Source: a virus
Length of the DNA stretch: 41,780 nucleotides
Reading direction: 5' to 3' (one strand)
Virus record (IMG/VR): IMGVR_UViG_3300020473_000055
Span: 1 to 41,780 of that record
The stretch's first letter is position 1; each line of letters starts with the position of its first letter. The notes beneath the pieces were generated by a model that saw only the letters and a list, made by a program, of their open reading frames with translations, did not search any database and was not told the DNA's origin. Both the position numbers and the translations under genes were made by a program. Shown here one piece after another: positions 1,566 through 20,249 of this stretch.

Positions 1566-2447
1566 ATGCCACTATTACACATTGAACACCTAGAAGATAC
1601 AGTGCTTAATGGTAACTTATCGGCACTTGAATTACTGGAGAATTCTAGTAACTTAACAGCGAAGATTGATGGTTCTCCAAGTATAGTTTGGGGGCAAGAT
1701 CCTGCTGACAATCTTTTCTTTGTAGGCACTAAATCTGTCTTCAATAAAAAGTTAGTTAAGAGGTGCAAATCATACGGAGATGTTAACAAGTATTATAAGG
1801 GAGAATTGGCGGATATATTAACACAATGCTTTCGTTATTTGCCCAATGATGGTAACATTTATCAGGGTGATTTCATAGGGTTAGGTGGACTTAGTGAGTA
1901 CAATCCTAATACAGTTACTTATACTTTTGATCGTGTAATTCGTGAGGACATAATAATAGCACCTCACACAACTTATGTCGGTAATAGTAAAGATCTTCGT
2001 GAACACAAAGTATTACCTTTGACTCGTAATCTCCAGAACACTAATAACGTGCGGTTCGTATCTTCTACGGTAACTAACAACAATTGCATGGAAGATTTGA
2101 CGTTCGTTATTAACTTTGCTAGGACGATTGCAGGGGCAGTAGAGTTCATCGAAGATCCAAAGAATGTCGCTGCTATGAAGAAAGAATTAAACGCATATAT
2201 TCGTGAAGATAGAGAAATAGTGCCAGAAGAGTTTGATAACACTAACCTCGTAAGATTCTACAACTTAGTGATAAGAATTAAGGAACAATTTATGGACAAT
2301 TGTAATACAAACTCTTCTGAGATGAAAGCATCACTTAATGGCGAAGATTACGATGGCGAAGGTTATGTTTTATCAGACAAATTACAGACAATTAAACTCA
2401 TTAACCGTAGAGAGTTTAGTTATAACAATTTCATACGTAATTCATAG
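1566..2447 (+). CDS. DUF6267-type protein with ligase-like nucleotidyltransferase motifs
   Basis: The protein has 293 residues from the ATG at 1566. An in-frame ATG at 1518 adds 16 hydrophobic residues that do not match the LLHIEHLED start I associate with this family. In order it shows KIDGSP (33-38), FFVGTKS (51-57), YQGDFIG (99-105), GEGYVLSD (264-271) and IKLINR (276-281). These resemble motifs I, III, IV and V of the covalent nucleotidyltransferases, the DNA/RNA ligases and capping enzymes, where the lysine of KxDG takes the AMP. I recall similar cyanophage proteins under DUF6267 without a proven activity. A ligase or RNA-repair role is inference. It has no obvious strong ribosome site, and the AbrB-like gene follows after a 186-base gap. 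Confidence 0.75.
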   Translation: MPLLHIEHLEDTVLNGNLSALELLENSSNLTAKIDGSPSIVWGQDPADNLFFVGTKSVFNKKLVKRCKSYGDVNKYYKGELADILTQCFRYLPNDGNIYQGDFIGLGGLSEYNPNTVTYTFDRVIREDIIIAPHTTYVGNSKDLREHKVLPLTRNLQNTNNVRFVSSTVTNNNCMEDLTFVINFARTIAGAVEFIEDPKNVAAMKKELNAYIREDREIVPEEFDNTNLVRFYNLVIRIKEQFMDNCNTNSSEMKASLNGEDYDGEGYVLSDKLQTIKLINRREFSYNNFIRNS

Positions 2448-2611
2448 CACTAAATGTTAATGAACAGATACAGATTACCAGTCGTTCGTTAACATCGCAG
2501 TTTATTATATTTGCCGCCCCCCGTTTATAAAATCGACTACTACCCTAACCTACAAAGTGTTACGGAAGCGAGCTATAAATTCCAATCGAAGTCAAAATTT
2601 TTTTCGTACTA

Positions 2612-2617
2612 TATAAT
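2612..2617 (+). promoter_or_regulatory. possible -10 element TATAAT
   Basis: A perfect TATAAT lies 16 bases before the ATG at 2634, but no good -35 is visible 16-18 bases upstream. It sits in the 186-base gap 2448-2633, where I see no gene. Confidence 0.25.
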
Positions 2618-2633
2618 TTTGAAAAAGGTTAAT

Positions 2634-2819
2634 ATGGATCCTACTATGCAAAAAAAATTCGGGCATGAAGAAACCACCATAGAGGTTGACACAATTAGCG
2701 GAGAGTATTATACTGTTATTCCTGAGTGGGTTATACATGACATGGATTGGTACGAAGGTGCTTCAGTAGAGTTTAACATCGAGTCCGACGAAGTTATTAT
2801 TAAGGATGCTAATGAATAA
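2634..2819 (+). CDS. small AbrB/MazE-like protein (61 aa)
   Basis: This protein of 61 residues has the pattern of a swapped-hairpin AbrB-like domain: a beta-rich start, then YYTVIPEWVIHDMDWYEG, then acidic strands ending SDEVIIKD. In AbrB/MazE proteins the equivalent segment is I/L-P...L-W-x-G-x-x-V. The usual basic DNA-binding residues are sparse and the protein is strongly acidic, so a transcription-factor role is doubtful. Small proteins of this look recur in cyanophages. The frame is open back to a TTG at 2511, but that extension is low-complexity and I reject it. The last 8 bases overlap the start of the next gene. Confidence 0.65.
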   Translation: MDPTMQKKFGHEETTIEVDTISGEYYTVIPEWVIHDMDWYEGASVEFNIESDEVIIKDANE

Positions 2820-6689: not shown

Positions 6690-9600
6690 ATGATACAAAC
6701 TGGGTTTGAAAAGAGAGTAACTGTTCAGCAAGTTATTGAAAATCAACTTCCTGAATTTGTGCTCTCTGAGAGTCCAAAGACTGTCGATTTTTTAAAGCAA
6801 TATTACATTTCACAGGAGCATCAGGGTGGTGCTTCTGATATCGCAGTTAATCTGGATCAATATCTAAAGGTAGATAACTTTACACCAGAGGTAATTTCTG
6901 GTGAAACAACACTATATTCTGATATTGATACTTCAGATACTACTATTCAGGTATATTCTACTAAAGGATTTCCTGATGAGTATGGTTTATTCAAGATTAA
7001 TGATGAAATCTTTACTTATACTGGAGTAACAACTAATACCTTTACTGGCGTAATACGTGGATTTAGTGGAATTACAAGTTATAGGACTGATTTAGACGCA
7101 GAAGAACTTGTTTTTAGCGACACTAGTGCTGGAAGTCATACTGCTAGTACTAAGGTTCAGAACCTAAGTGCACTATTTTTAAAGGATTTTTATAGAAAGT
7201 TAAAAGTAACTCTTACACCAGGACTTGAAGATGTAGATTTTCAGGCAGATCTTGATGTTAATAACTTTATTAAGGAAGCAAGAAGTTTATATGAGTCAAA
7301 AGGAACAGAAGAATCCTTCAGAATCCTATTCAATGCTCTCTATGGAGTAGAACCTAAAGTTGTTGATTTAGAGCAATACCTACCCAAACCCTCCTCGGCA
7401 GAGTTTTTAAGGAGAGAATTACTAGTTGCTGAAAGAATTTCTGGAAATCCTGCTAATTTAGTTGGACAAACTATTAGAAAATCAACAGATTCTGCTACTC
7501 AAGGTGCTGTTTCTGAAGTTGAAGTCTTTACTAGATCTGGAATTAGTACATATTACAAGATTGGACTGTTTGTTGGGTATAGTGATAATGCGTTAATTGA
7601 AGGTACATTCGAAGTTCAACCAAAAACTAAGGTAATTAATCCAGTTTCTGTATCAGATTCTATTATTACAGTTGATTCTACCATTGGATTTGGTGCAACT
7701 GGAACATTAGTATCTGGTAAGAACATTATTACCTATAGTAGTAAGAGTGTTAACCAGTTCTTAGGTTGCCAGGGTGTAACTGTTGGTATTGGTACAGCAG
7801 ATGAGATAAGAACGGATGAAGTATTTGTTGGATATGAGAATGGAGATTTAACTAAAAAGGTAGAAATACGTCTTGGTGGTGTTTTATCTGACTTTAAAAC
7901 TACGAATGATGTTTTAGATACTTCAGAGGAGCAGATTTTATATGTGAATCATGTAGGTGAAAAGATAAAATTATCTGAAACTGGTTCTACTGATAAGGAA
8001 TTATTTGCTAATTCTTGGATTTACAATACTAGTTGTAGATTTGATGTTGATGAAATTAATACTGGTTCGTCAACTATTACATTAAAATCAGATATTGACA
8101 AATCACAATTAAAAGTTGGCGATAAAATTGATATTTTATTAGGTGATACTGAAAATATAGCACTTACTAATGCAACTATTGGTTCAATTGATAAGACTCT
8201 TAAGCAAATTCAGTTGAATAATATGACTGGATTTAATTATAATGCCCTTCAGACATATACTATTAGGAAAAAATTAAATACTGCTACTAGTTCTGGGACA
8301 TCTATAATTTATGGACAGAATAAAGTTACTACAGATATTCAAAACGTTTATAATGAGAATGATGAAGCATTCTATGTTGCTTCAAACTCTTTACCGTCAT
8401 ATGATATAACAAAATCTACTGTTAAGTATACTGTTTCTACTGGAACTGCAGGTGCATTGGATGGTTATAACAGTATAATAGAGCAATATCAAATTATTTC
8501 TTTTACAGAACCAACACTAGACTTTATCACTGGAGACAAAGTTGTTTATAAAGCAGAAACTACACCTCTTAAGGGATTGGAAGAAGGGGAATATTATGTT
8601 GAGGTATTAAATGGTGGTAAAATTAAATTATATGAATCTAGAGGTTTAATTGAAACTAATGGAACTATAGTTGATGGTTCTGTAGTTAATAATGCTAAAG
8701 GATTTGTTTCAGATGGAACTAATAATCATACTTTTATTTTAGCAAGTCAAACTGACGATTCCATACATCCACAGAAACTTCTTAAGAAATTCCATCATTC
8801 ACAGAATCTTAAAACAGGGGAAGGTACTAAAACCAGTACTGGTTCTCTTGGGATGTTGATTAATGGTGTTGAAGTTGTTAGTCCAAAATCATTAGATAAA
8901 ATTTATTATGGTCCTTTAGATAATATTACTGTTTATAATAATGGAACAGATTATGATGTACTAAATCCACCAACTATTGAAATTGCTAGTGGATTAGGTA
9001 TAACTGCTCTTGCTCGTGCAGTTGTAAGAGGTAGTGTTAAGGAAGTTCTAGTAGATCGTCAGGATTTTGACGTAGATGATGTTAAGAGTGCCACTATATC
9101 TGGTGGAAATGGTTCTGGAGCAGTCTTAGAACCGATGGTAGGTGTCAGACAACGTGAAGTTAGGTTTGACAGTCGTGATGACGTTGCTGGTGGTGGAGTA
9201 AGTTTATCTCTTGATACAATTACCTTTGTACAAGATCATAATTTTGTCAATGGAGAACCTATTGTATATGATTCAAATGGTAATACTGGTTTAGGTACTT
9301 TTGTTAATAATGCCATCTATTATCCAGAGGTTATTAGTAATACCAAGATTAAAGTATATGCAACTAAGACTGATTATGATAATAAAACCCTTGCTTTAGA
9401 TTTTAATGGTATAACTGGTGGACAAGGTATTCATAAGTTTAAAAAGTCAGAATATACCAAAACCTTAAGAGGAATAAGAGTTATTGATGGTGGTTCTGGG
9501 TATACTAATAGAAAATTGATTGTTGATCCAGTAGGTGTCAATACTGTAACTAATATTATTACCTTTAATAATCATGGATTTAATAGTGGAGATAAAGTTG

Positions 9601-12600
9601 TTTATTCTGCTGATACTGCAGCTATAGAAGGATTGTCAACATCAACTCAGTATCAAATTATTAAATTAGATAATCATTCATTCAAACTTGCAAATGCAGG
9701 TGTTGGTGGAACAATAACAAGTAATTATGAGAGAGGAAATTATGTTGGTTTGGGATCTACTGGTGTTGGATATCAAAATTTTGCATATCCTGATATCACT
9801 TTAACTGTTAATGCAACAATTTCTGGTGTTGGAACTGCTACTCAAGCAGTAGGAGTAATAACTGCAACACCTATAATAAGAGGTGAAGTTATTGATGCTT
9901 ATCTTTATGATAAGGGTACTGGATATGGTTCATCTATTATAAACTTTGATAAGAGTCCAGTTGTAAAGGTTAAATCTGGTAAGGATGCTGAATTTAAACC
10001 AATTATCATTAATGGTAAAGTTGATCAAGTAGTTGTACAGTATGCTGGTGTTGAGTATACATCCCCTCCCGATTTAACCTTTATTGGTATTGGTTCTGGT
10101 GTTGGTGCTAAAGCAAGAGCAATTGTTGAAAATGGAAAAGTAACTAATGTTTCTATTATCAATCCAGGTGTTAATTATAGTTCAAATACTGGAGTTGCAG
10201 CAACTTCTGTAGGACGTAATGCATTTATTGAAGCAGATATAAGAGAATTGACTGTAAATAACCATAAGAGGTTTGGTAATGAGATATTAGTTCAGAATGT
10301 CAGTGGTTTGCAATATGGATATGTGGGACATTCTACAGCAATTGGTAGCAAACTAGGTGATAAATTAGACACACACTCACCAATTATAGGATGGGCATAT
10401 GATGGAAATCCAATTTATGGTCCTAATGGATATTCTGATCCAGAAGATGCTAACTCTTCCGTAAAATATGTAAATACTGGATATATTTTATCAAGTTCTG
10501 ATGTTGTAGATAGACCTCCATTTAAGATGGATGGTACAGTATTTGATCAAGGATTCTTTATTGAAGACTATAAATTTGATAATTCAGGTGATTTAGATGT
10601 ACATAATGGTAGATATACCAAAACACCAGATTTTCCAAATGGTGTATATGCATATTTCGCTGGAATAACCACTGTAAGTAGAGAAGCAAAATTCCCTTAC
10701 TTTATCGGTGATACATATAGATCTAAATTGATTGAACAAGGTATAGATCAAAGTTTTGATTTTAATAACTCAGATTTAATTAGAAATACTCTTCCATACA
10801 AATCTGAAGATTTAACTGCTGATAATGATTTCATCTCAGAACCTTATGAAATAGTACAGCAAAGAACAATTGTCGATGCTATAAGTAAAGGAACTGTTGA
10901 TTCCTTCTTAATCAATCAACCTGGTGATGGGTATGCTGTCAATGATATTCTACAATTTGATAATAGTGGAACAAATGGTGGTGGATTAAACGCCTATGTT
11001 TCTAGAGTTGGTGGAAGATATATTAGAAGTGTTGATACTGAAGTTATTACTTATCAAGATTCATTATTAATTTGGGATAATTCAAATCAAATTTCAGTGC
11101 ATGTTTCACCTACACATGCTCTACTTGATGGTGATACTGCTGTTGTTTCTGGAGTATCTACATTTGTTGCCAATTTAACAGGAGATCATAAAATCGGAGT
11201 TACTTCTGAGAGTGCATATCTAATTGCTCCAGTTGCTCATAATACAGTTCTTGGATTTGTAACTGACATATATGCTTCATCTATACCAAAGAATATTTCT
11301 ATTGGATCTACAGTTGCTATAGGTGTAACTAATCAAGAAATAGTTAAAGTTAATAATATATTCCATGATAGAAAAGTTCTAAGAATAGAAAGACTAGTTA
11401 ATCCAGGTATTGGACATACAGAGTCTGAATCTATATCTAAACTTGCTGATACATTCACAATACCACTTAATAGTGAGTATTTTGATTCTAGAAAGAATGA
11501 TAAGGTATATTTCAACCCACTTGAGGCAGTTGGTATTGGTACAACTGCTGGTTTTGAACAGAGTAAGAAGTATAGAATTGGTGATGTTCAGTATGACATC
11601 TCAGTTCCACATCAAAGCATTTATATACCAAATCACCCATTTACAGATAATCAGGCGGTAACATTTACTAGTAGTACACAACCTATTAAGAAGAGTAATA
11701 AGAAAACTGGTGGATTGAGTAATCTCCCTACCACTGGATTGTATGTTATTAATAAGGGTAAGGATTATATTGGACTTACTACATTCAGAGATCGTGCAAA
11801 TGCAAGTGCAGTAGGATTTAATACTGGTGGATTCTTCTTTAGATCATTTACATCCAATGGAGACAGTCGTGATTGGAAGTATTCTTTAGAGTCTAATCAT
11901 ACACAACAAACTGCAAGAATAGAAAGAATAACAGGTACTGTTGTTACTGGTGCTCCTTGGGAAGGAACTCAAATAACCAAATCAGCTTTTGATGATGGAC
12001 ATTTATTGGCAAATGGTGATGAAATTAAATTATCAGTCAAATCTAATCAATCTGTTGGTATTGGGACTTCTGCTGCGGTAAAACTTTCTTATAATTCTGA
12101 AAATGATAAACTTATAGTAGGGTTAACTACATTTACAGAAAGTGTCTTAAATGTAAATAAAAATGAAATAAGTCTTACTTCACACGGATTTAAAACTGGT
12201 GATAAAGTTTTCTATAACAGTACAGTTGTCCAACCAATAACTGGATTAGGAACAGGTTCATATTATGTTTATAGAATAGATGATGATAAGTTCCAATTAG
12301 GACAAACTAATTATGATGTTGTTGCAAAACCTCCAACAATAATAGATCTTTCTGCTCCTGTTTCTCCATCACCTGCTGGAGTGATTGGACATCAAATTTC
12401 TAAGGTTAATCCTCGTATTGAAGTTGTTGAAAATAATAATTTAGTATTTGATGTTTCTGATACTTCATTGTCTGGATATAGTTTGAAGATTTATCATGAC
12501 AAAGAGTTTAAAAATGAATTAGTATCTGTTGGTGGAACAGTTACTAACTTTAGTGCATCTAGTCTTGGTGGTGCAGTTGGTTGTGGCACAACATCTACAT

Positions 12601-15600
12601 TAACTTTAAATTATGATACTTCATTACCAACCAAACTTTATTACAATCTAGAAAGGGGTGGATATATTAGTACATCTGATACAGAAGTTGTTAATAATTC
12701 TGAAATACTCTTTGTTCCTAGTGTTTATAATAATACTTACTCAGTTTCTGGAATAGGTAGTACTACCTTCCAGATATCCCTTAAATCGGTTCCAGAGACA
12801 CTATCTTATACTCAGACTACATCTAGTCAGTTAAAGTACTCTACGTCTTCTACGACTGCTAGGGGTGGTGTTGAGTCTATAAGAGCTACTTCTGGTGGAC
12901 TTAATTATAAGAAATTGCCTGAGTTTACTACTATTACATCCACACAAGGTGTAAATGCAGATATAATACCAAAATCTTCTACTATTGGTAGAATAAAGGA
13001 AGTTACTATTGAAGATGCTGGTTTTGATTATTCTGCAGATAAAACATTAAGTCCAGAAGTCTTTATTTCTCCAAATATTACTGTAGTTGATAGAAACTCT
13101 CTTACTGGTATTAATATACTTTCTGGAGGATCTGGATATACTATTGCCCCAGATGTTGTTATTATTGATCCAGATACTAATGAACCATATCCCGATAGTT
13201 ATATAACGGCAGAAATTCAATCATCATCACTTACTAGTGTTGAAATCCTACAGACTCCAAAGGGATTATCAGATAAAGTTAATACTGCCTATACGGTTAA
13301 TAACTCAAATGGAGTTGGTATTACTAAGATTCAATCTACTGGTGTTGGAACTGCTTTCCTTACTTTAGAAACTCCTATTTCCAACTTCACAACAGCACCA
13401 TTTGCTATAGGTGATAAAATCTTCATTGAAGGTATTAGCGTACTTGGTGGTATTGGAACTACAAGCACAGGATACAATTCTCCAGAAAATGGATATTCAT
13501 TCTTTACGGTTGAAAGTGTTGGTGCAGCAAATCCAGTTATAATAGGTATCGGACTTACTGAAGTAACTTCATATGCTGGTATTGCAGTTACTGATACTAA
13601 CGGATATGGTTTGGCAATCAATAAAAACAATTATCCGACATTTGAAGTTATTCAAACACCTGAGCAATTTATTCTAGAAGAAAGATTATATGTTCTTCAG
13701 GGTTCTACATATGTTCTTCAAGATCTGTATATCACTAAGAACTTAAATGATCAAATTAAAATTAGAGGTACATACGACTTAGTTGTTGGTGATCAAATTC
13801 GTGGTAAGGAATCTGGAACGATAGCTACTATAAGTGAAATTGTAGAGAATAAAGGAAGGTTTAAGATAGATTATTCCTTAAGACAGGATAAGGGATGGAA
13901 TGATAATATTGGAAAATTGAATGAAGATTTCCAAGTTCTTCCTGATAACGACTATTATCAGAATTTATCATATACTGTTAAGAGTCCTGTGTTATGGGAG
14001 GATTTAATAAACCCTGTAAATAGACTCTTACATACAACAGGATTGAAGAATTTCTCTGATACTGGAATAACAACTGCTACAAATATTTCCGCTAAAGTTC
14101 CTGTAGATGCTGGTAGTTTTGCATTAATTGATATTGTTGGTGAAAAGAGAGTTGATACTGTAAGTGATTTTGATTTTGCAATCGATCTTGATGCAACTGG
14201 TGGTAAGTCTAGGTTTGTTAAATTCCAGAACAAGAGACTGTCTGATTATATCAATAACAGTTCTAACCGTGTTCTTCCAATAGATGATATTTCAGATGGA
14301 TTCAATAAGGTATTCACAGAGAATAATTTCTTTACTAACCTCGATACAATAAGTTCTGGTAGTGGATATAATCGTTATTTGGTTCAAATAGTTAATCCTA
14401 ATAATAACCAAAGACAAGTAACGGAATTAATAACTCTCACTGATAATGATAATAACATCTACACATTTGAAAAAGGTTCAATTGGAGTAGAAACAGGTGG
14501 TTCTACTAACTCTTACAAGGTAGATAGATTAGGAGACATTGTAGGGGATAGTGATACATCTCAATTAGTATTCAATCCAAAAAATCCATATGATTATGAT
14601 TATGATTTAAAAGTTATTAAAAATACCTTTAATACATCAAATACTGGTATCGGAACTACTAGTTTTGGATTTGTTGATGTAATTGGTTCTAATAACCTTG
14701 TTGGTGTTGGATTAACAGAAACATTATTCTCTGCTACTGCAAATCAGAATGAGGCATTCTTTGCTAATATTGAGGTTACAAATACTCAAACATTTGATAC
14801 AAGATATGTTGAACTTTACGTCGATCAAGATGGAACAGATACATATGTTTCTGATTTTTACTTAGATAATAAAGATGGTGCTACTGCAAACTTCATTGGT
14901 ACATTTGGTGCATCAATAAGTGGCGGTGTTGTTAAGGTTAACTTCACCAATAGTACAGAATCTGCTGGCGTTTATGTTAAATCAAGAGCAGTTGGATTTG
15001 GTGTTACCTCTGCTGGTATTGGAACATATAGGTTCTTAACTAGTGGGCAATCAGGTGGATCTGAGAAAACTGCAAGATATGAGAGTAAGTTTGCATATAC
15101 TCTTGCTCCTGCAACTGCAACACAAGTCTTTAGTGTTGCTAAAGCAGATGTAAGTAGTATTAAGTCAGTTGTTAAGGTTGGATATGGTGTTACATCAGCA
15201 TTACATCAGTTACTTTCAATTCATGATGGAACAGATGTTTATACCACACAATACCCATTTGTATCAGTTGGTAGTACTAGTGGTATAGGTACATTTGGTT
15301 CTGAATTTAGTGGTTCTAATTTAATATTGAAATTCTATCCTGATGCTGGAATTAATAATGTAGTTTTAATTCAATCATACAGTGAAATAATACAAACAGA
15401 GACTGATTTAATCAATATACCAGAGGATCTTAATTATGGAACTTTAACAGAAAATATTATAACTGCTCCATATAATGGTGTTAATGAAAATAGGATTAAT
15501 GTTACTGAATTTGATGCCAATTATAATAAGATTCCAATCTTTACTAAAACATTTAATCCAGCAACTACAACTCTTGTAAACTTAAGTACAGGAACATTCA

Positions 15601-18600
15601 CTATCAAAGATCATTTCTTTGAAACTGGAGAAGAGTTGGAATATGAAGCAGTTTCTACTTTCAGCAATATAACTGCTGATGCTATGGAAATGTCTAATGG
15701 TAGTGATTTGCCAGCAACTGTTTATGCTATCAAAGTTACTAATGATGAGTTTAGACTTTCATTAACATCTAGTGGATCTGCAATTACATTCAATAATGCT
15801 GGAGCAGGTAATGCTCACACACTTACTATGGCTAAGAGAGCAGAGAAAACTCTTCTTTCTATTGATGGTATTGTACAAACACCAGTAGCAAGAACTAATG
15901 TTGGATATGCTCTTACCAATAACTACGGTAATATAAGTGCTACAGATACAATTGCTTCTTTGGTTGGTATTTCTTCTATATTACCAGGAGATATTCTTAA
16001 AATTGATAATGAGTATACCGAAGTTACAAATGTTGGATTAGGAACTACTGCTGTTGGACCAATAACTGGTAGTGGAGCATATAGTCTAGTTGAATTAAAT
16101 AGAGGATTTGTTGGATCAACTGCAGCAGTGCATAATGATCAAGCAACTGCTCAGGTTTATCTTGGTTCATATAATATTGTTAAGAGTAAACTTCATTTTG
16201 CTGCACCTCCAACTGGAAATAACGTAAATGATATAGATGTTACTACTAACTTAGCAAATGCAAGATCTACATTTGGTGGTAGAGTTTATCTAAGACAAGA
16301 TTATACACTGAATAAGATATATGATAATATTTCCAAAGATTTTACTGGAATAGGAGCAACTTATCCATTAACGGTTAATGGTTCAGGTACAACAGGTATT
16401 GAGACTGGAAGTGGATTGGTGTTTATTAATAACATGTTCCAAACACCAACTACATTGAATAATCTTGGAAATACATATGATTTCATTGATGGCAATACTG
16501 CTACTAAGGTAAGATTTACTGGAATAACAACTGCTGCTAATAACAATTTGGTAATATCTGATTATGATGTAAACCAGAATCAGTTACCAAGGGGAGGACT
16601 CATAGTTTCTCTTGGTTCTAGTATTGGACGTGGATATGCTCAACCAGTAGGTGCTTTAGTAACTTGTGGACACTCAGGTGGTGGTATTAATACCATTGGA
16701 TTTACAACTACAAGTGATATTACAACCCCATTTGGTTCTGGATATAGAGGAAATCTTCCTGGAAACAAAGTTTCTATTGCTATAACTGATACTTCTACTT
16801 CTGGAATAGTAACAGCAAAAGTTAATGCATATATTGGTGCTGGTGGAACAATAACTGGATTTGAAATATTAACTGCTGGTAGTGGATATGCTAATCCTAT
16901 TGTCCAGATGCCTTCTCCTTCATATAGTAACTTGGAAATTACTGGTGTATCAAGACTTGGTTCTGGTATGACAGCAGATACTGGAAAGGGATTATTATTG
17001 GATATTGAGGTTGGACCTACTGATGCAATTCCAGTTGACAATAAGTTTGGTGATGCTTCAGATCTTATTGAGGCAAATACCTCATTTATTTCTCAAGTAG
17101 CAGCGAAAAGGATGTTTGATAGATGGAACAATGGTTCCAACTCATCATATAGTTATCCTTCTGGATTTACAGAACAAGATTGTATTGATGACGTAGTAGA
17201 TGTTTTAGATGCTACTGCACATAACCTTAAGTTTGGTGGTAATGATAAGACTTATGATGCTGCGAATTTATTCGTAACTGGCGTATATTCTACTCCTCCA
17301 CCTGTTACTGGTGAGGAAGAGCAAGTAATTTATGCCCTAATGGAAGCCAGAGATATGGCAATTAGAGCAATGAGAAATCAGAAGATTTATACTCATCTTG
17401 GTGCTCAATATGCTCACACATATACAGGTGGTACAGTTCAAGAGGCTGTTTGTAAAGGTGGTGATTATCCACACACATATATTCCAGCAGATTCTGCTGC
17501 TAATGCAATTAATGGTTCTTTGAAACCAACACAAGCTGTCTATAATGGACAGGATGGTATGTTGCAACTAACATTTGCTAGTGCTCATGGTATTGCTAAT
17601 TCTTCAAATGTAACTATTGCAGATCATTCATTAGTATTCACATGTGCTAGAGATGGACATGCTACTAAACATGCATATCCAAGACCATCTGATCCTGCTT
17701 CAGGTACTAATTTAGCTGCTATTGTAAGTAGTCCTACAGTATTGACAGTAAATGTTGGAACCTCACCGTTAAGATGGGAGCCTGTTATGGCTGGTTCTGG
17801 TGCTGAAGCAACATCATATGATGCTAAGACTGGTGAATTAGTACTTAATATTGGTAGTGATCATGGATTATATGCACCAACAACATTAAATGCACCTACA
17901 GCAGCAACTTATGCACCAACAACAGGTGTTTTAAGACTCACTATTGCATCACATGGTTGTTCAGTTGGTTCTTATATTAAGATTGATGACAATTCATTAA
18001 CATTCACATGTGCTAGAGATAATCATACTACTCAACATTCATATCCTCGTTCTACTGATCCTGTAAGTGATGTATGGTTGCCAGTTCATCAGATATCGGC
18101 AAATAGAATATGGGTTAATATTGGTAAATCTCCTGATACTTCTGCACATACATTTGTATCAGCAACTGCTGGTGTTAAGAAGGCAAATTCTGGTATTGGT
18201 ATTGGAACCAGTAAATTAGGATTTAAGTGTACTAGAGACGCTACTGCTGCTAACCCACAAGGTGTAGCACAGCAATTATACCCACGTCCAGGCGATCCAT
18301 TCTCTTGGAATAAGAAACAGATATCAATCGCATCTACAACTACTTCTTCAGTTACAGTTAACGTTGGTGTTTCTTCTACATCACATACAAACTTAACTCA
18401 ATTTACTGATAGTACAATTACTACAGATACTTCTGGTGGTGCTGCATGTGCTACAGTTGAATCTGCAATTCATACTCTTGTTGGAATAGTTACTGATGTT
18501 GTTAAGACACATAATGCTAATGAATTACCAGCATCAAGGACATTAGCAAGTATTGAGACATATGAAGTTAATGACTTTAAGATTGCCAGACCTGGTTACG

Positions 18601-20249
18601 GTTTCAGAAAAGGTGATGTATTCAAACCAGTAGGACTTGTTACTGATAGAACTCTATCTACACCTCAAGCTGACTTCTCACTTACAGTAATTGATACATT
18701 TAGTGATTCATTTGCTGCATGGCAGTTTGGAGAATTGGATTATATCGATTCAATCGCAGAATTGCAGAATGGTGATAGAGTTAGATTCCCATTAAGATAT
18801 AATGGAGATTTACTAAGTTTCGAAACAAATAGTGATGAAGTTGACTTAAATGCTCTTCTACTCATCTTTATTAACGGTATTATGCAGCATCCAGGGCAAC
18901 ATTATACTTTTGATGGAGGAACATCATTTGTATTCGCAGAACCTCCAAGTGCTGATTCTAAAGTTTCAATATTCTTCTACAGAGGAACTCGTTCAACTGA
19001 TAGTGCATATGTAAACATTGATGAAAGCGTGAAGGTTGGTGATACTATAGAATTGAAAACAACTCTTGATGTTCAAGGACAAGATCCTAGAATAGTCTCT
19101 GGTATTTCTAGTTCTGATAAAATAAGAACCAGTATATACACTGGATTGAATATTAATGAAACTGATTACAGACTTTTAGATTGGACTAAACAGAAAATTG
19201 ATAGAAATATTGAAGGAGAAGCAGTTTACAAGTCTAGAGATTCAATTGAAGGATTAGTTTATCCAACTGCTAGAATTATTGACAATCTAGCATCATCTGG
19301 AATATCTTCAATATATCTTGATAATGCTCAATTCTTTAACTATGAAGAAAATGAATCTGCTGTTGTTATAGTAAGTTGTGATGCATTAGTAATGCAAAAT
19401 GCAAATCCAGTTGCAGCAGCAGTTACAGCAACAGTTTCTGCTGCAGGAACTATAGGTGCATTGACAGTTGTTAGTGGTGGTTCTGGATATATCGGTTCTG
19501 CTGTTACAGTTTCAATCGCTAGACCTATAGGTGCTGCTGTTACCTTCACTGGTGGAGTGGGTGTTTATACTGGAATAGCAACTGCAACTATACCAGTTGT
19601 AAATGGTTCATTATCTGGAACAGCAAATATAACAAGTATTGGTGTAGGGTATACACATTCAACACCTCCAAATGTACTTGTACCAATTGAGACTACTCCA
19701 TTAGATGAAACTATCAGTGGTATTACTACCGTTAGAGGATTCTCTGGTATTGTTACTGGAATTACTACTTCACATAGTGGTAGTGACTTATTCCTCAACT
19801 TTATGATTAATAAAGGTGCTGATGGACAAAATATTACTGCTGATTTGAAGGTTGGATATCCAATTTACATTAGTGATACTAATGTAGGACATGGAGTTAC
19901 TTCAATTGATGGACATGAGAATTCTATTGTTAGTATCGGAACAACCTTCATAGATAATATCTACAAGGTTCATTCCTTTACTAGATTTGATAACAACTCT
20001 GGTAAATTCTCAGTTAGAGTTAAAACTGGTTCTAATGTTGGTTTTGCTTCTGCATATGCTGGTATAAACACTGGTGGAATTGGAAGATACTCTTGGGGTG
20101 TATTGGAATCAACTGATACACGATCTGGTGGAATAGGAATTGCTGTTACAGGTAACATTCTTTCATCAGGAATAAGCACATTCCCAACGATTCAAAGAAG
20201 AGGATATGGAATACGTTCCAACGGTGCTCTTAGAAAAGATCTTGGGTAG
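6690..20249 (+). CDS. 7: giant baseplate wedge protein gp7-like, modular with YHYH motif
   Basis: The protein has 4519 residues; T4 gp7 has 1032. Position after gene 6 and the N-terminal block (1-240, with ENQLPEFVLSESPKTVDFLK and SLYESKGTEESFRILFNALY) identify gp7. The rest is repeats: six HxF..GD..VxY units with conserved turns near residues 615, 855, 967, 1652, 1837 and 2980; many GxGY units; at least thirteen G[IVL]GT tetrapeptides; and three CxRD..YPRxxDP units (cysteines 3652, 3774, 3847). A YHYH-type motif HSPIIGWAYDGNPIYGPNG starts at 1229. One unbroken frame covers 13.5 kb. The gp7 N-terminus should anchor it in the wedge; the extension is probably peripheral and might touch fibres or the host. 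The stop abuts a late promoter. Confidence 0.85.
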   Translation: MIQTGFEKRVTVQQVIENQLPEFVLSESPKTVDFLKQYYISQEHQGGASDIAVNLDQYLKVDNFTPEVISGETTLYSDIDTSDTTIQVYSTKGFPDEYGLFKINDEIFTYTGVTTNTFTGVIRGFSGITSYRTDLDAEELVFSDTSAGSHTASTKVQNLSALFLKDFYRKLKVTLTPGLEDVDFQADLDVNNFIKEARSLYESKGTEESFRILFNALYGVEPKVVDLEQYLPKPSSAEFLRRELLVAERISGNPANLVGQTIRKSTDSATQGAVSEVEVFTRSGISTYYKIGLFVGYSDNALIEGTFEVQPKTKVINPVSVSDSIITVDSTIGFGATGTLVSGKNIITYSSKSVNQFLGCQGVTVGIGTADEIRTDEVFVGYENGDLTKKVEIRLGGVLSDFKTTNDVLDTSEEQILYVNHVGEKIKLSETGSTDKELFANSWIYNTSCRFDVDEINTGSSTITLKSDIDKSQLKVGDKIDILLGDTENIALTNATIGSIDKTLKQIQLNNMTGFNYNALQTYTIRKKLNTATSSGTSIIYGQNKVTTDIQNVYNENDEAFYVASNSLPSYDITKSTVKYTVSTGTAGALDGYNSIIEQYQIISFTEPTLDFITGDKVVYKAETTPLKGLEEGEYYVEVLNGGKIKLYESRGLIETNGTIVDGSVVNNAKGFVSDGTNNHTFILASQTDDSIHPQKLLKKFHHSQNLKTGEGTKTSTGSLGMLINGVEVVSPKSLDKIYYGPLDNITVYNNGTDYDVLNPPTIEIASGLGITALARAVVRGSVKEVLVDRQDFDVDDVKSATISGGNGSGAVLEPMVGVRQREVRFDSRDDVAGGGVSLSLDTITFVQDHNFVNGEPIVYDSNGNTGLGTFVNNAIYYPEVISNTKIKVYATKTDYDNKTLALDFNGITGGQGIHKFKKSEYTKTLRGIRVIDGGSGYTNRKLIVDPVGVNTVTNIITFNNHGFNSGDKVVYSADTAAIEGLSTSTQYQIIKLDNHSFKLANAGVGGTITSNYERGNYVGLGSTGVGYQNFAYPDITLTVNATISGVGTATQAVGVITATPIIRGEVIDAYLYDKGTGYGSSIINFDKSPVVKVKSGKDAEFKPIIINGKVDQVVVQYAGVEYTSPPDLTFIGIGSGVGAKARAIVENGKVTNVSIINPGVNYSSNTGVAATSVGRNAFIEADIRELTVNNHKRFGNEILVQNVSGLQYGYVGHSTAIGSKLGDKLDTHSPIIGWAYDGNPIYGPNGYSDPEDANSSVKYVNTGYILSSSDVVDRPPFKMDGTVFDQGFFIEDYKFDNSGDLDVHNGRYTKTPDFPNGVYAYFAGITTVSREAKFPYFIGDTYRSKLIEQGIDQSFDFNNSDLIRNTLPYKSEDLTADNDFISEPYEIVQQRTIVDAISKGTVDSFLINQPGDGYAVNDILQFDNSGTNGGGLNAYVSRVGGRYIRSVDTEVITYQDSLLIWDNSNQISVHVSPTHALLDGDTAVVSGVSTFVANLTGDHKIGVTSESAYLIAPVAHNTVLGFVTDIYASSIPKNISIGSTVAIGVTNQEIVKVNNIFHDRKVLRIERLVNPGIGHTESESISKLADTFTIPLNSEYFDSRKNDKVYFNPLEAVGIGTTAGFEQSKKYRIGDVQYDISVPHQSIYIPNHPFTDNQAVTFTSSTQPIKKSNKKTGGLSNLPTTGLYVINKGKDYIGLTTFRDRANASAVGFNTGGFFFRSFTSNGDSRDWKYSLESNHTQQTARIERITGTVVTGAPWEGTQITKSAFDDGHLLANGDEIKLSVKSNQSVGIGTSAAVKLSYNSENDKLIVGLTTFTESVLNVNKNEISLTSHGFKTGDKVFYNSTVVQPITGLGTGSYYVYRIDDDKFQLGQTNYDVVAKPPTIIDLSAPVSPSPAGVIGHQISKVNPRIEVVENNNLVFDVSDTSLSGYSLKIYHDKEFKNELVSVGGTVTNFSASSLGGAVGCGTTSTLTLNYDTSLPTKLYYNLERGGYISTSDTEVVNNSEILFVPSVYNNTYSVSGIGSTTFQISLKSVPETLSYTQTTSSQLKYSTSSTTARGGVESIRATSGGLNYKKLPEFTTITSTQGVNADIIPKSSTIGRIKEVTIEDAGFDYSADKTLSPEVFISPNITVVDRNSLTGINILSGGSGYTIAPDVVIIDPDTNEPYPDSYITAEIQSSSLTSVEILQTPKGLSDKVNTAYTVNNSNGVGITKIQSTGVGTAFLTLETPISNFTTAPFAIGDKIFIEGISVLGGIGTTSTGYNSPENGYSFFTVESVGAANPVIIGIGLTEVTSYAGIAVTDTNGYGLAINKNNYPTFEVIQTPEQFILEERLYVLQGSTYVLQDLYITKNLNDQIKIRGTYDLVVGDQIRGKESGTIATISEIVENKGRFKIDYSLRQDKGWNDNIGKLNEDFQVLPDNDYYQNLSYTVKSPVLWEDLINPVNRLLHTTGLKNFSDTGITTATNISAKVPVDAGSFALIDIVGEKRVDTVSDFDFAIDLDATGGKSRFVKFQNKRLSDYINNSSNRVLPIDDISDGFNKVFTENNFFTNLDTISSGSGYNRYLVQIVNPNNNQRQVTELITLTDNDNNIYTFEKGSIGVETGGSTNSYKVDRLGDIVGDSDTSQLVFNPKNPYDYDYDLKVIKNTFNTSNTGIGTTSFGFVDVIGSNNLVGVGLTETLFSATANQNEAFFANIEVTNTQTFDTRYVELYVDQDGTDTYVSDFYLDNKDGATANFIGTFGASISGGVVKVNFTNSTESAGVYVKSRAVGFGVTSAGIGTYRFLTSGQSGGSEKTARYESKFAYTLAPATATQVFSVAKADVSSIKSVVKVGYGVTSALHQLLSIHDGTDVYTTQYPFVSVGSTSGIGTFGSEFSGSNLILKFYPDAGINNVVLIQSYSEIIQTETDLINIPEDLNYGTLTENIITAPYNGVNENRINVTEFDANYNKIPIFTKTFNPATTTLVNLSTGTFTIKDHFFETGEELEYEAVSTFSNITADAMEMSNGSDLPATVYAIKVTNDEFRLSLTSSGSAITFNNAGAGNAHTLTMAKRAEKTLLSIDGIVQTPVARTNVGYALTNNYGNISATDTIASLVGISSILPGDILKIDNEYTEVTNVGLGTTAVGPITGSGAYSLVELNRGFVGSTAAVHNDQATAQVYLGSYNIVKSKLHFAAPPTGNNVNDIDVTTNLANARSTFGGRVYLRQDYTLNKIYDNISKDFTGIGATYPLTVNGSGTTGIETGSGLVFINNMFQTPTTLNNLGNTYDFIDGNTATKVRFTGITTAANNNLVISDYDVNQNQLPRGGLIVSLGSSIGRGYAQPVGALVTCGHSGGGINTIGFTTTSDITTPFGSGYRGNLPGNKVSIAITDTSTSGIVTAKVNAYIGAGGTITGFEILTAGSGYANPIVQMPSPSYSNLEITGVSRLGSGMTADTGKGLLLDIEVGPTDAIPVDNKFGDASDLIEANTSFISQVAAKRMFDRWNNGSNSSYSYPSGFTEQDCIDDVVDVLDATAHNLKFGGNDKTYDAANLFVTGVYSTPPPVTGEEEQVIYALMEARDMAIRAMRNQKIYTHLGAQYAHTYTGGTVQEAVCKGGDYPHTYIPADSAANAINGSLKPTQAVYNGQDGMLQLTFASAHGIANSSNVTIADHSLVFTCARDGHATKHAYPRPSDPASGTNLAAIVSSPTVLTVNVGTSPLRWEPVMAGSGAEATSYDAKTGELVLNIGSDHGLYAPTTLNAPTAATYAPTTGVLRLTIASHGCSVGSYIKIDDNSLTFTCARDNHTTQHSYPRSTDPVSDVWLPVHQISANRIWVNIGKSPDTSAHTFVSATAGVKKANSGIGIGTSKLGFKCTRDATAANPQGVAQQLYPRPGDPFSWNKKQISIASTTTSSVTVNVGVSSTSHTNLTQFTDSTITTDTSGGAACATVESAIHTLVGIVTDVVKTHNANELPASRTLASIETYEVNDFKIARPGYGFRKGDVFKPVGLVTDRTLSTPQADFSLTVIDTFSDSFAAWQFGELDYIDSIAELQNGDRVRFPLRYNGDLLSFETNSDEVDLNALLLIFINGIMQHPGQHYTFDGGTSFVFAEPPSADSKVSIFFYRGTRSTDSAYVNIDESVKVGDTIELKTTLDVQGQDPRIVSGISSSDKIRTSIYTGLNINETDYRLLDWTKQKIDRNIEGEAVYKSRDSIEGLVYPTARIIDNLASSGISSIYLDNAQFFNYEENESAVVIVSCDALVMQNANPVAAAVTATVSAAGTIGALTVVSGGSGYIGSAVTVSIARPIGAAVTFTGGVGVYTGIATATIPVVNGSLSGTANITSIGVGYTHSTPPNVLVPIETTPLDETISGITTVRGFSGIVTGITTSHSGSDLFLNFMINKGADGQNITADLKVGYPIYISDTNVGHGVTSIDGHENSIVSIGTTFIDNIYKVHSFTRFDNNSGKFSVRVKTGSNVGFASAYAGINTGGIGRYSWGVLESTDTRSGGIGIAVTGNILSSGISTFPTIQRRGYGIRSNGALRKDLG

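What the first reader, a model, noticed from the sequence alone, without database searches (positions are those of the whole stretch)
1566..2447. DUF6267-type protein carries ligase-like nucleotidyltransferase motifs
KIDG, YQGD, GEGYV and IKL appear in the right order for motifs I, III, IV and V of the ligase/capping superfamily. I know the family only as uncharacterised. If active it could be a DNA or RNA end-sealing enzyme in the accessory block. The second catalytic region is at the very C-terminus, so no OB-fold domain follows, as in some minimal RNA ligases.
Basis: partly seen in the sequence, partly recalled or inferred. Interest (0 to 1): 0.6.

Follow-up and report, generated by a model that had tools for sequence, protein, structure and literature searches.

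The report
Ligase-like enzyme in ocean cyanophages
An uncharacterised protein (DUF6267) carried by the T4-like viruses that infect ocean cyanobacteria appears, from its invariant residues and predicted shape, to be a stripped-down DNA- or RNA-joining enzyme, and it is a candidate for the ligase those viruses were thought to lack.

Summary
The ORF at 1566-2447 encodes 293 aa of DUF6267 (E 2e-71) with KIDG, YQGD, GEGYV and IKL where stated. K33, D35, G36, D102, E265, G266 and K277 are identical in 91 of 91 homologues spanning two length classes. The AlphaFold model (pLDDT 89) matches covalent ligases in all 50 entries listed, best Naegleria RNA ligase (Z 8.6, 3.7 A over 171 residues). A model of the long class agrees more weakly.

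Against this, no sequence-profile comparison links DUF6267 to any ligase, and Foldseek E-values are not significant.

The gene is not accessory. It is in 20 of 20 complete T4-like cyanophages examined, where PF01068, PF09414, PF09511 and PF01653 find no other ligase. A 2010 review notes that cyanophages lack T4 DNA ligase. In 14 of those 20 it lies next to, or is fused with, an NMNAT-like cytidylyltransferase gene.

Best reading: a nucleotidyltransferase-only ligase with a helical insert between motifs III and IV, Asp in motif III and no OB domain. It probably forms Lys33-AMP and seals polynucleotide ends. The activity, DNA versus RNA, and ATP versus NAD+ are untested.

The parts
1566..2447 (+). 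DUF6267 gene, 293 aa plus stop; predicted covalent nucleotidyltransferase (ligase superfamily)
1578..1598 (+). N-terminal signature H5-x-E7-H8-x-E10-D11, invariant, unassigned function
   Evidence: 91 of 91 homologues
1662..1673 (+). motif I, K33-x-D35-G36 (predicted adenylated lysine K33)
   Evidence: 91 of 91
1725..1748 (+). motif Ia-like, G54-T-K56-S-V-F59-N-K61
   Evidence: K56 and F59 in 91 of 91; motif name recalled
1860..1871 (+). motif III, Y99-Q-G-D102 (Asp where T4 Rnl2 has Glu)
   Evidence: Q100, G101, D102 in 91 of 91
1920..1928 (+). motif IIIa-like, Y119-T-F121
   Evidence: Y119 in 91 of 91; assignment recalled and tentative
2088..2297 (+). helical insert between motifs III and IV (residues 175-244), variable in length across the family
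   Evidence: model helices 175-189, 198-213, 226-244; III-IV spacing 156-176 or 238-250 residues
2355..2369 (+). motif IV, G264-E265-G266-Y-V268
   Evidence: E265, G266, V268 in 91 of 91
2391..2408 (+). motif V, I276-K277-L-I-N-R281; only the first lysine of K-x-K is kept, R281 follows
   Evidence: K277 and R281 in 91 of 91

Best explanation
The gene encodes a single-domain covalent nucleotidyltransferase of the DNA/RNA ligase superfamily. By analogy with known ligases it should take AMP from ATP (or NAD+) onto Lys33, pass it to a 5'-phosphate end, and seal that end to a 3'-OH. Shown: motifs, their invariance, the predicted fold, near-universality in T4-like cyanophages, and the absence there of other recognisable ligases. 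Inferred: lysyl-AMP formation, end sealing and the nature of the end. I put about 0.85 on the fold and an active covalent site, and about 0.6 on polynucleotide sealing. The nearest folds are RNA ligases, but the gene often sits by the replication genes and T4 DNA ligase is missing, so I leave DNA versus RNA open at near-even odds. With no OB domain it probably needs a partner protein, or binds its substrate through the helical insert.
For: Catalytic residues invariant in 91 of 91 homologues, from a short class (36) and a long class (55). Spacings are nearly fixed: I-III 69-72, IV-V 12-14, with length change mostly in III-IV, 39 sequences. AF2 model pLDDT 89, pTM 0.83. VIA-align: all 50 entries listed are ligases, best 6vt1 Z 8.6; T4 Rnl1 7.2, T4 Rnl2 6.6, DNA ligase I 6.2. 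Model of the long class (pLDDT 80.9): RNA editing ligase 1 Z 7.3 and Naegleria ligase 7.1 lead. End-point arithmetic on the listed ranges puts E265 at about 312 of Naegleria ligase, whose E312A mutant is among the entries. PF19782 in 20 of 20 complete cyanophages; PF01068, PF09414, PF09511, PF01653 in 0 of 20 each, while T4 rings for the first three. tblastn: DUF6267 hits 371 'Synechococcus' and 61 'Cyanophage' records against 373 and 61 for the T4-like marker gp6. PMC2984593 (one passage) states that g30 homologues are not found in cyanomyoviruses and that distant unidentified homologues are one possibility. Replication gene gp41 lies upstream in 57 of 85 long-class loci (cluster identity).
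Against: hhalign of three DUF6267 alignments against six ligase alignments gave at most 2.4% probability, no better than 31 unrelated families (top 3.9%); six reversed controls reached 0.5%. The positive control was weak: only 7 of 15 known ligase pairs passed 50%. No Pfam ligase matched any of 39 members at E up to 10, and no PDB ligase by profile. Foldseek found no PDB match below E 0.001 (best 0.038), and for the long class its top rows are unrelated helical proteins. In one search, 19 of the 50 rows are not ligases. The second motif V lysine is not kept. Three non-cyanophage carriers also have a DNA ligase, so it is not a simple substitute. Host ligase could serve cyanophages instead, which PMC2984593 calls the more probable option.
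Confidence: 0.6

Rival explanations
1. A covalent nucleotidyltransferase that is not a ligase: it moves AMP (or GMP) from Lys33 to a protein, a small molecule or an RNA 5' end, as capping enzymes do, without sealing strands.
For: No OB or other nucleic-acid-binding domain is visible. The family is often paired or fused with a HIGH-type nucleotidyltransferase, as in small-molecule pathways.
Against: All 50 listed structural neighbours of the window model are ligases; capping enzymes (8p4a_M, 4pz8_A) appear only lower in Foldseek at E 0.97 and 1.2. Neighbouring genes in the long class include replication genes.
Confidence: 0.2
2. An NAD+-using ligase. The paired NMNAT-like enzyme turns released NMN back into NAD+, so the two form a cycle; the invariant N-terminal H-x-E-H-x-E-D segment would bind the NMN half.
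For: Adjacent or fused NMNAT-like gene in 14 of 20 cyanophages and downstream or fused in 64 of 70 long-class loci with room. The nearest named NCBIfam models are NMN/NaMN adenylyltransferases, all below cut-off.
Against: No NAD-ligase adenylation domain (PF01653) in 24 records. In the window's own subgroup the partner is adjacent in only 5 of 119 contigs with room. The partner's substrate is unknown.
Confidence: 0.1
3. A tail or virion assembly factor that keeps a ligase-like fold, as T4 Rnl1 also acts in tail-fibre attachment.
For: The window gene lies beside gp25 and gp6. T4 rnlA is annotated as tail fiber protein attachment catalyst.
Against: The location is not kept: in the long class it often follows gp41. 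S-CREM2 gp87 carries no virion note, while its near neighbour gp85 does.
Confidence: 0.04
4. The motifs and the fold match are misleading, and this is an unrelated protein of unknown function.
For: No significant sequence or Foldseek link.
Against: Invariance and nearly fixed spacing at exactly the catalytic positions, and two separate models pointing to ligases.
Confidence: 0.06

Closest known systems
Naegleria gruberi RNA ligase (5cou, 6vt1 series; Rnl5 type, type name recalled)
   Same: Closest solved fold of the window model, Z 8.6, 3.7 A over 171 residues; the match covers residues 146-339 of the chain
   Different: 14% identity; the match does not include its residues before 146; no long helical insert between motifs III and IV (recalled)
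T4 RNA ligase 2 (Rnl2, Pfam PF09414)
   Same: Z 6.6; motif order I, III, IV, V; similar text after motif III (GEFAG in T4, GDFIG here)
   Different: KxHG not KxDG, Glu not Asp in motif III, KxK not KxI/V in motif V; T4 Rnl2 has a C-terminal domain (recalled); no profile match
T4 RNA ligase 1 (Rnl1, PF09511) and T4 DNA ligase gp30 (PF01068)
   Same: Rnl1 Z 7.2; cellular DNA ligases about Z 6; same catalytic motif order
   Different: gp30 and Rnl1 absent from the 20 cyanophages that carry DUF6267; DNA ligases have an OB domain (recalled), none here; no profile match
Trypanosoma RNA editing ligase 1 (1xdn)
   Same: Top structural row for the long class, Z 7.3
   Different: rmsd 5.6 A, 11% identity
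DUF6267 (PF19782) / PHROG 455
   Same: Member by profile: E 2e-71 and 1.6e-105
   Different: Both are listed without function; this report proposes one

Membership tests
DUF6267 (PF19782) | profile score above the curated cut-off | tested here: met
   241.8 bits against 27
Covalent nucleotidyltransferase (ligase) superfamily | motif I lysine KxDG conserved | tested here: met
   91 of 91
Covalent nucleotidyltransferase (ligase) superfamily | acidic residue in motif III, Glu in motif IV, Lys in motif V | tested here: met
   D102, E265, K277 each 91 of 91
Covalent nucleotidyltransferase (ligase) superfamily | two lysines (KxK) in motif V, as in many ligases (recalled; not universal) | tested here: not met
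   residue 279 is V in 83 and I in 8 of 91
Covalent nucleotidyltransferase (ligase) superfamily | nucleotidyltransferase fold | tested here: met
   predicted only: Z up to 8.6, 50 of 50 listed entries ligases; long class weaker; Foldseek not significant
Covalent nucleotidyltransferase (ligase) superfamily | detectable sequence-profile homology | tested here: inconclusive
   no match, but only 7 of 15 known ligase pairs were found by the same hhalign method
Covalent nucleotidyltransferase (ligase) superfamily | lysyl-NMP intermediate | not testable with these tools
   needs protein
ATP-dependent DNA ligase (PF01068) | profile match | tested here: not met
   0 of 39 members at E up to 10
ATP-dependent DNA ligase (PF01068) | C-terminal OB domain | tested here: not met
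   16 residues after K277; model ends in one helix
T4 Rnl2-type RNA ligase (PF09414) | profile match | tested here: not met
   0 of 39 members at E up to 10
T4 Rnl1-type RNA ligase (PF09511) | profile match | tested here: not met
   0 of 39 members at E up to 10
NAD+-dependent DNA ligase (PF01653) | adenylation-domain profile match | tested here: not met
   0 of 39 members; 0 of 24 records

The most novel reading that the evidence does not exclude
DUF6267 is the missing ligase of T4-like cyanophages: a new, nucleotidyltransferase-only ligase family that took over nick sealing where gp30, Rnl1 and Rnl2 are absent. It runs on NAD+, and its fused or neighbouring NMNAT-like enzyme recycles the released NMN, making a phage-encoded ligation and NAD+ cycle.
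Probability: 0.1. Interest if true: 0.85.

Novelty: new variant of a known kind. Interest (0 to 1): 0.6.

Why it matters
T4-like cyanophages have a T4-type replisome but no recognised ligase; PMC2984593 (one passage read) left open whether an unrecognised distant homologue exists and preferred use of the host enzyme. DUF6267 is present in every complete cyanophage tested (20 of 20) and has the right active site, so that question becomes a direct bench test. It would also give a function to a family listed without one in Pfam and PHROGs and add a ligase design without an OB domain, with possible use as a reagent.

Tried and rejected
Sequence links to ligases: phmmer and three profile searches of the PDB gave no ligase; hhalign gave nothing above controls. 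A first hhalign run used a global-alignment flag by mistake and is discarded. Pfam scan of 39 members gave DUF6267 in 39 and otherwise single weak matches to unrelated families.

'Accessory gene' rejected: 20 of 20 cyanophages carry it. Of those, 6 were first reached through DUF6267 hits and 14 by accession numbers recalled as a published T4-like set; at least 5 of the 14 (S-SM2, S-SSM5, S-SSM7, syn9, P-RSM4) had also appeared in DUF6267 hit lists. The gp6 comparison matches counts by first word of the name only; the record sets were not compared one by one. The organism list of the T4 DNA ligase search shows only the top ten names, so it does not prove zero in cyanophages; no cyanophage is among the 60 rows shown.

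A strict gp30-substitute reading is weakened by three non-cyanophages that carry both genes. Eight large uncultured contigs with DUF6267 had neither PF01068 nor PF09414 (0 of 8 each), but they may be fragments. Pfam, PHROG, NCBIfam and PDB gave no firm substrate for the NMNAT-like partner. Immediate upstream genes of the long class looked nuclease-like by eye, but Pfam gave nothing, so I make no claim. Paper searches for DUF6267 (0 papers) and for related ligase, cyanophage and cytidyltransferase terms showed no prior ligase assignment in the listings seen.

Full report
What is there. The ORF at 1566-2447 (+) encodes 293 aa and belongs to Pfam DUF6267 (PF19782, E 2e-71) and PHROG 455, unknown function. 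The gene is under purifying selection (dN/dS 0.15-0.36 against four homologues). Upstream is a Kyanoviridae Gp96 homologue (972-1319) and downstream are gp25 and gp6 (62.9% identical to the S-SKS1 baseplate wedge protein), so the window is part of a T4-like cyanophage-type genome.

Conservation. tblastn finds relatives in 470 of 50,697 phage records, mostly cyanophages. I built alignments of a short class (36 sequences of about 300 aa) and a long class (55 sequences of about 400 aa). Across the 91, these are identical in all: K33, D35, G36, P38, G43 (motif I region); K56, F59 (motif Ia-like); Q100, G101, D102 (motif III); Y119; H134, T135; N209; K239; E265, G266, V268 (motif IV); K277, R281 (motif V region); F284, N288; and an N-terminal H5-E7-H8-E10-D11-G16. 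Spacings I-III (69-72) and IV-V (12-14) hardly vary in 39 diverse members, while III-IV is 156-176 in the short class and 238-250 in the long. A nearly fixed active-site frame with the length change mostly in one insert is what an enzyme of this superfamily with a substrate-specific insertion would show.

Fold. AlphaFold2 on the 36-sequence alignment gives pLDDT 89 and pTM 0.83. Foldseek against the PDB ranks DNA ligases in its first six rows, but weakly (best E 0.038). VIA-align of Foldseek's top chains gives Naegleria RNA ligase Z 8.6 (171 residues, 3.7 A), T4 Rnl1 7.2, T4 Rnl2 6.6, a fungal tRNA ligase 6.4 and DNA ligases around 6; all 50 entries shown are ligases. The tool warns that Z under 8 can be a common arrangement, so the uniformity of the list matters more than the top Z. 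The long class, modelled from separate sequences (pLDDT 80.9), has RNA editing ligase 1 (7.3) and Naegleria ligase (7.1) on top, with 19 of 50 rows that are not ligases, mostly helical proteins, and no useful Foldseek match. Against viral models, 13 hits lie below E 0.001, and those I can place are the same family, several fused to a cytidyltransferase domain; an Agrobacterium phage RNA ligase follows at E 0.015.

Tests that did not support a link. hhalign of the two class alignments and their combination against T4 Rnl2, T4 Rnl1, T4 DNA ligase, bacterial RNA ligase, bacterial ATP ligase and LigD sets never exceeded 2.4% probability; 31 unrelated families reached 3.9% and reversed alignments about 0.5%. 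With the same settings only 7 of 15 true ligase pairs passed 50%, so the test has little power. No ligase family was hit by any of 39 members in Pfam at E up to 10, nor in PDB profile searches.

Genome distribution. In 24 phage records (20 complete T4-like cyanophages, three other carriers, T4), DUF6267 is in 20, 3 and 0; DNA_ligase_A_M in 0, 3 and 1; RNA_ligase in 0, 2 and 1; RNA_lig_T4_1 in 0, 2 and 1; NAD ligase in none. How the 20 were chosen is told under Tried and rejected. In INPHARED the DUF6267 query hits 371 records named Synechococcus and 61 named Cyanophage; the T4-like baseplate protein gp6 hits 373 and 61. PMC2984593 (one passage) says homologues of g30 DNA ligase are not found in cyanomyoviruses, that either distant homologues await discovery or host ligase substitutes, and prefers the latter. 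DUF6267 is a concrete candidate for the former.

Partner gene. A HIGH-type nucleotidyltransferase (conserved GRFxPPxxGH and SASKxR; Pfam CTP_transf_like) lies within 300 bp downstream of DUF6267, or is fused to it, in 14 of 20 cyanophages; it is elsewhere in 5, and none was detected in 1 (Syn1) (coordinates). Among long-class loci with at least 1.5 kb downstream, 64 of 70 have it downstream or fused; in the window's own short subgroup only 5 of 119 do. Fusions: metaG-MbCM1, L290, and a 437-aa ORF in S-PM2. The nearest NCBIfam names are NMN/NaMN adenylyltransferases, below cut-off. PMC3037559 (passages) reports a putative cytidylyltransferase, T4-GC190, in cyanophage virions and core genomes; PMC10665884 (passages and section 19) reports a cytidylyltransferase in S-CREM2 virions and calls it a homologue of NMNAT. 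S-CREM2's DUF6267 gene, gp87, carries no virion note.

Mechanism proposed. Step 1 (inferred): K33 takes AMP with loss of PPi or NMN; D35, D102, E265 and K277 hold nucleotide and metal. Steps 2 and 3 (inferred): AMP goes to a 5'-phosphate and the 3'-OH attacks. The helical insert, or a partner, would replace the missing OB domain. Foldseek also listed a phage heterodimeric DNA ligase (9i5i, E 1.3), so a split arrangement has a precedent by title. RNA ligases are the nearest folds, but rows within one Z unit are tied, and the Naegleria enzyme, at 8.6, is the one that stands well above the DNA ligases at about 6. Replication-gene neighbours (gp41 upstream in 57 of 85 long-class loci) and the missing gp30 favour DNA.

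Novelty. No paper in the held library contains DUF6267, and the other listings show no such assignment. PMC7824862 (passages) surveys phage RNA ligases as RtcB, Rnl1 and Rnl2. I class it as a new variant of a known kind: the superfamily is known, but this family has its own insert, an invariant Asp in motif III, one motif V lysine, an invariant N-terminal signature and no OB domain.

Noticed in passing
L171 9177-10247; L178 4001-6187; W01-W20: A HIGH-type, NMNAT-like nucleotidyltransferase is a frequent neighbour or fusion partner of DUF6267.
   Followed up: partly
L178 4001-6187 (JN371769 145353-147539): The DUF6267-nucleotidyltransferase fusion of metaG-MbCM1 is annotated 'NrdB ribonucleotide reductase A subunit', which its domains do not support.
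   Followed up: partly
NC_006820 103037-104222: In S-PM2 the DUF6267 frame is split between a 198-aa and a 437-aa ORF, while a 591-aa S-PM2 protein is in the BFVD library.
   Followed up: no
L171 (NZ_RMVE01000006): A Nonlabens genome contig carries T4-like phage genes (a gp41-type helicase gene, DUF6267); prophage, phage contamination or mis-assembly is not resolved.
   Followed up: no
L171 7157-7936, L243 1165-2071, L096 5665-6499: Genes near DUF6267 are diverse unknown proteins that look nuclease-like by eye; Pfam gave no match above cut-off for the one of these three that was scanned (L171).
   Followed up: partly
window 6690-20249: A single ORF of 4519 aa lies beside the gp25/gp6 baseplate genes; not analysed.
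   Followed up: no
window 2511-2819: A short ORF after the DUF6267 gene looks AbrB-like by eye; no Pfam match at 0.01 for the part from 2616.
   Followed up: no
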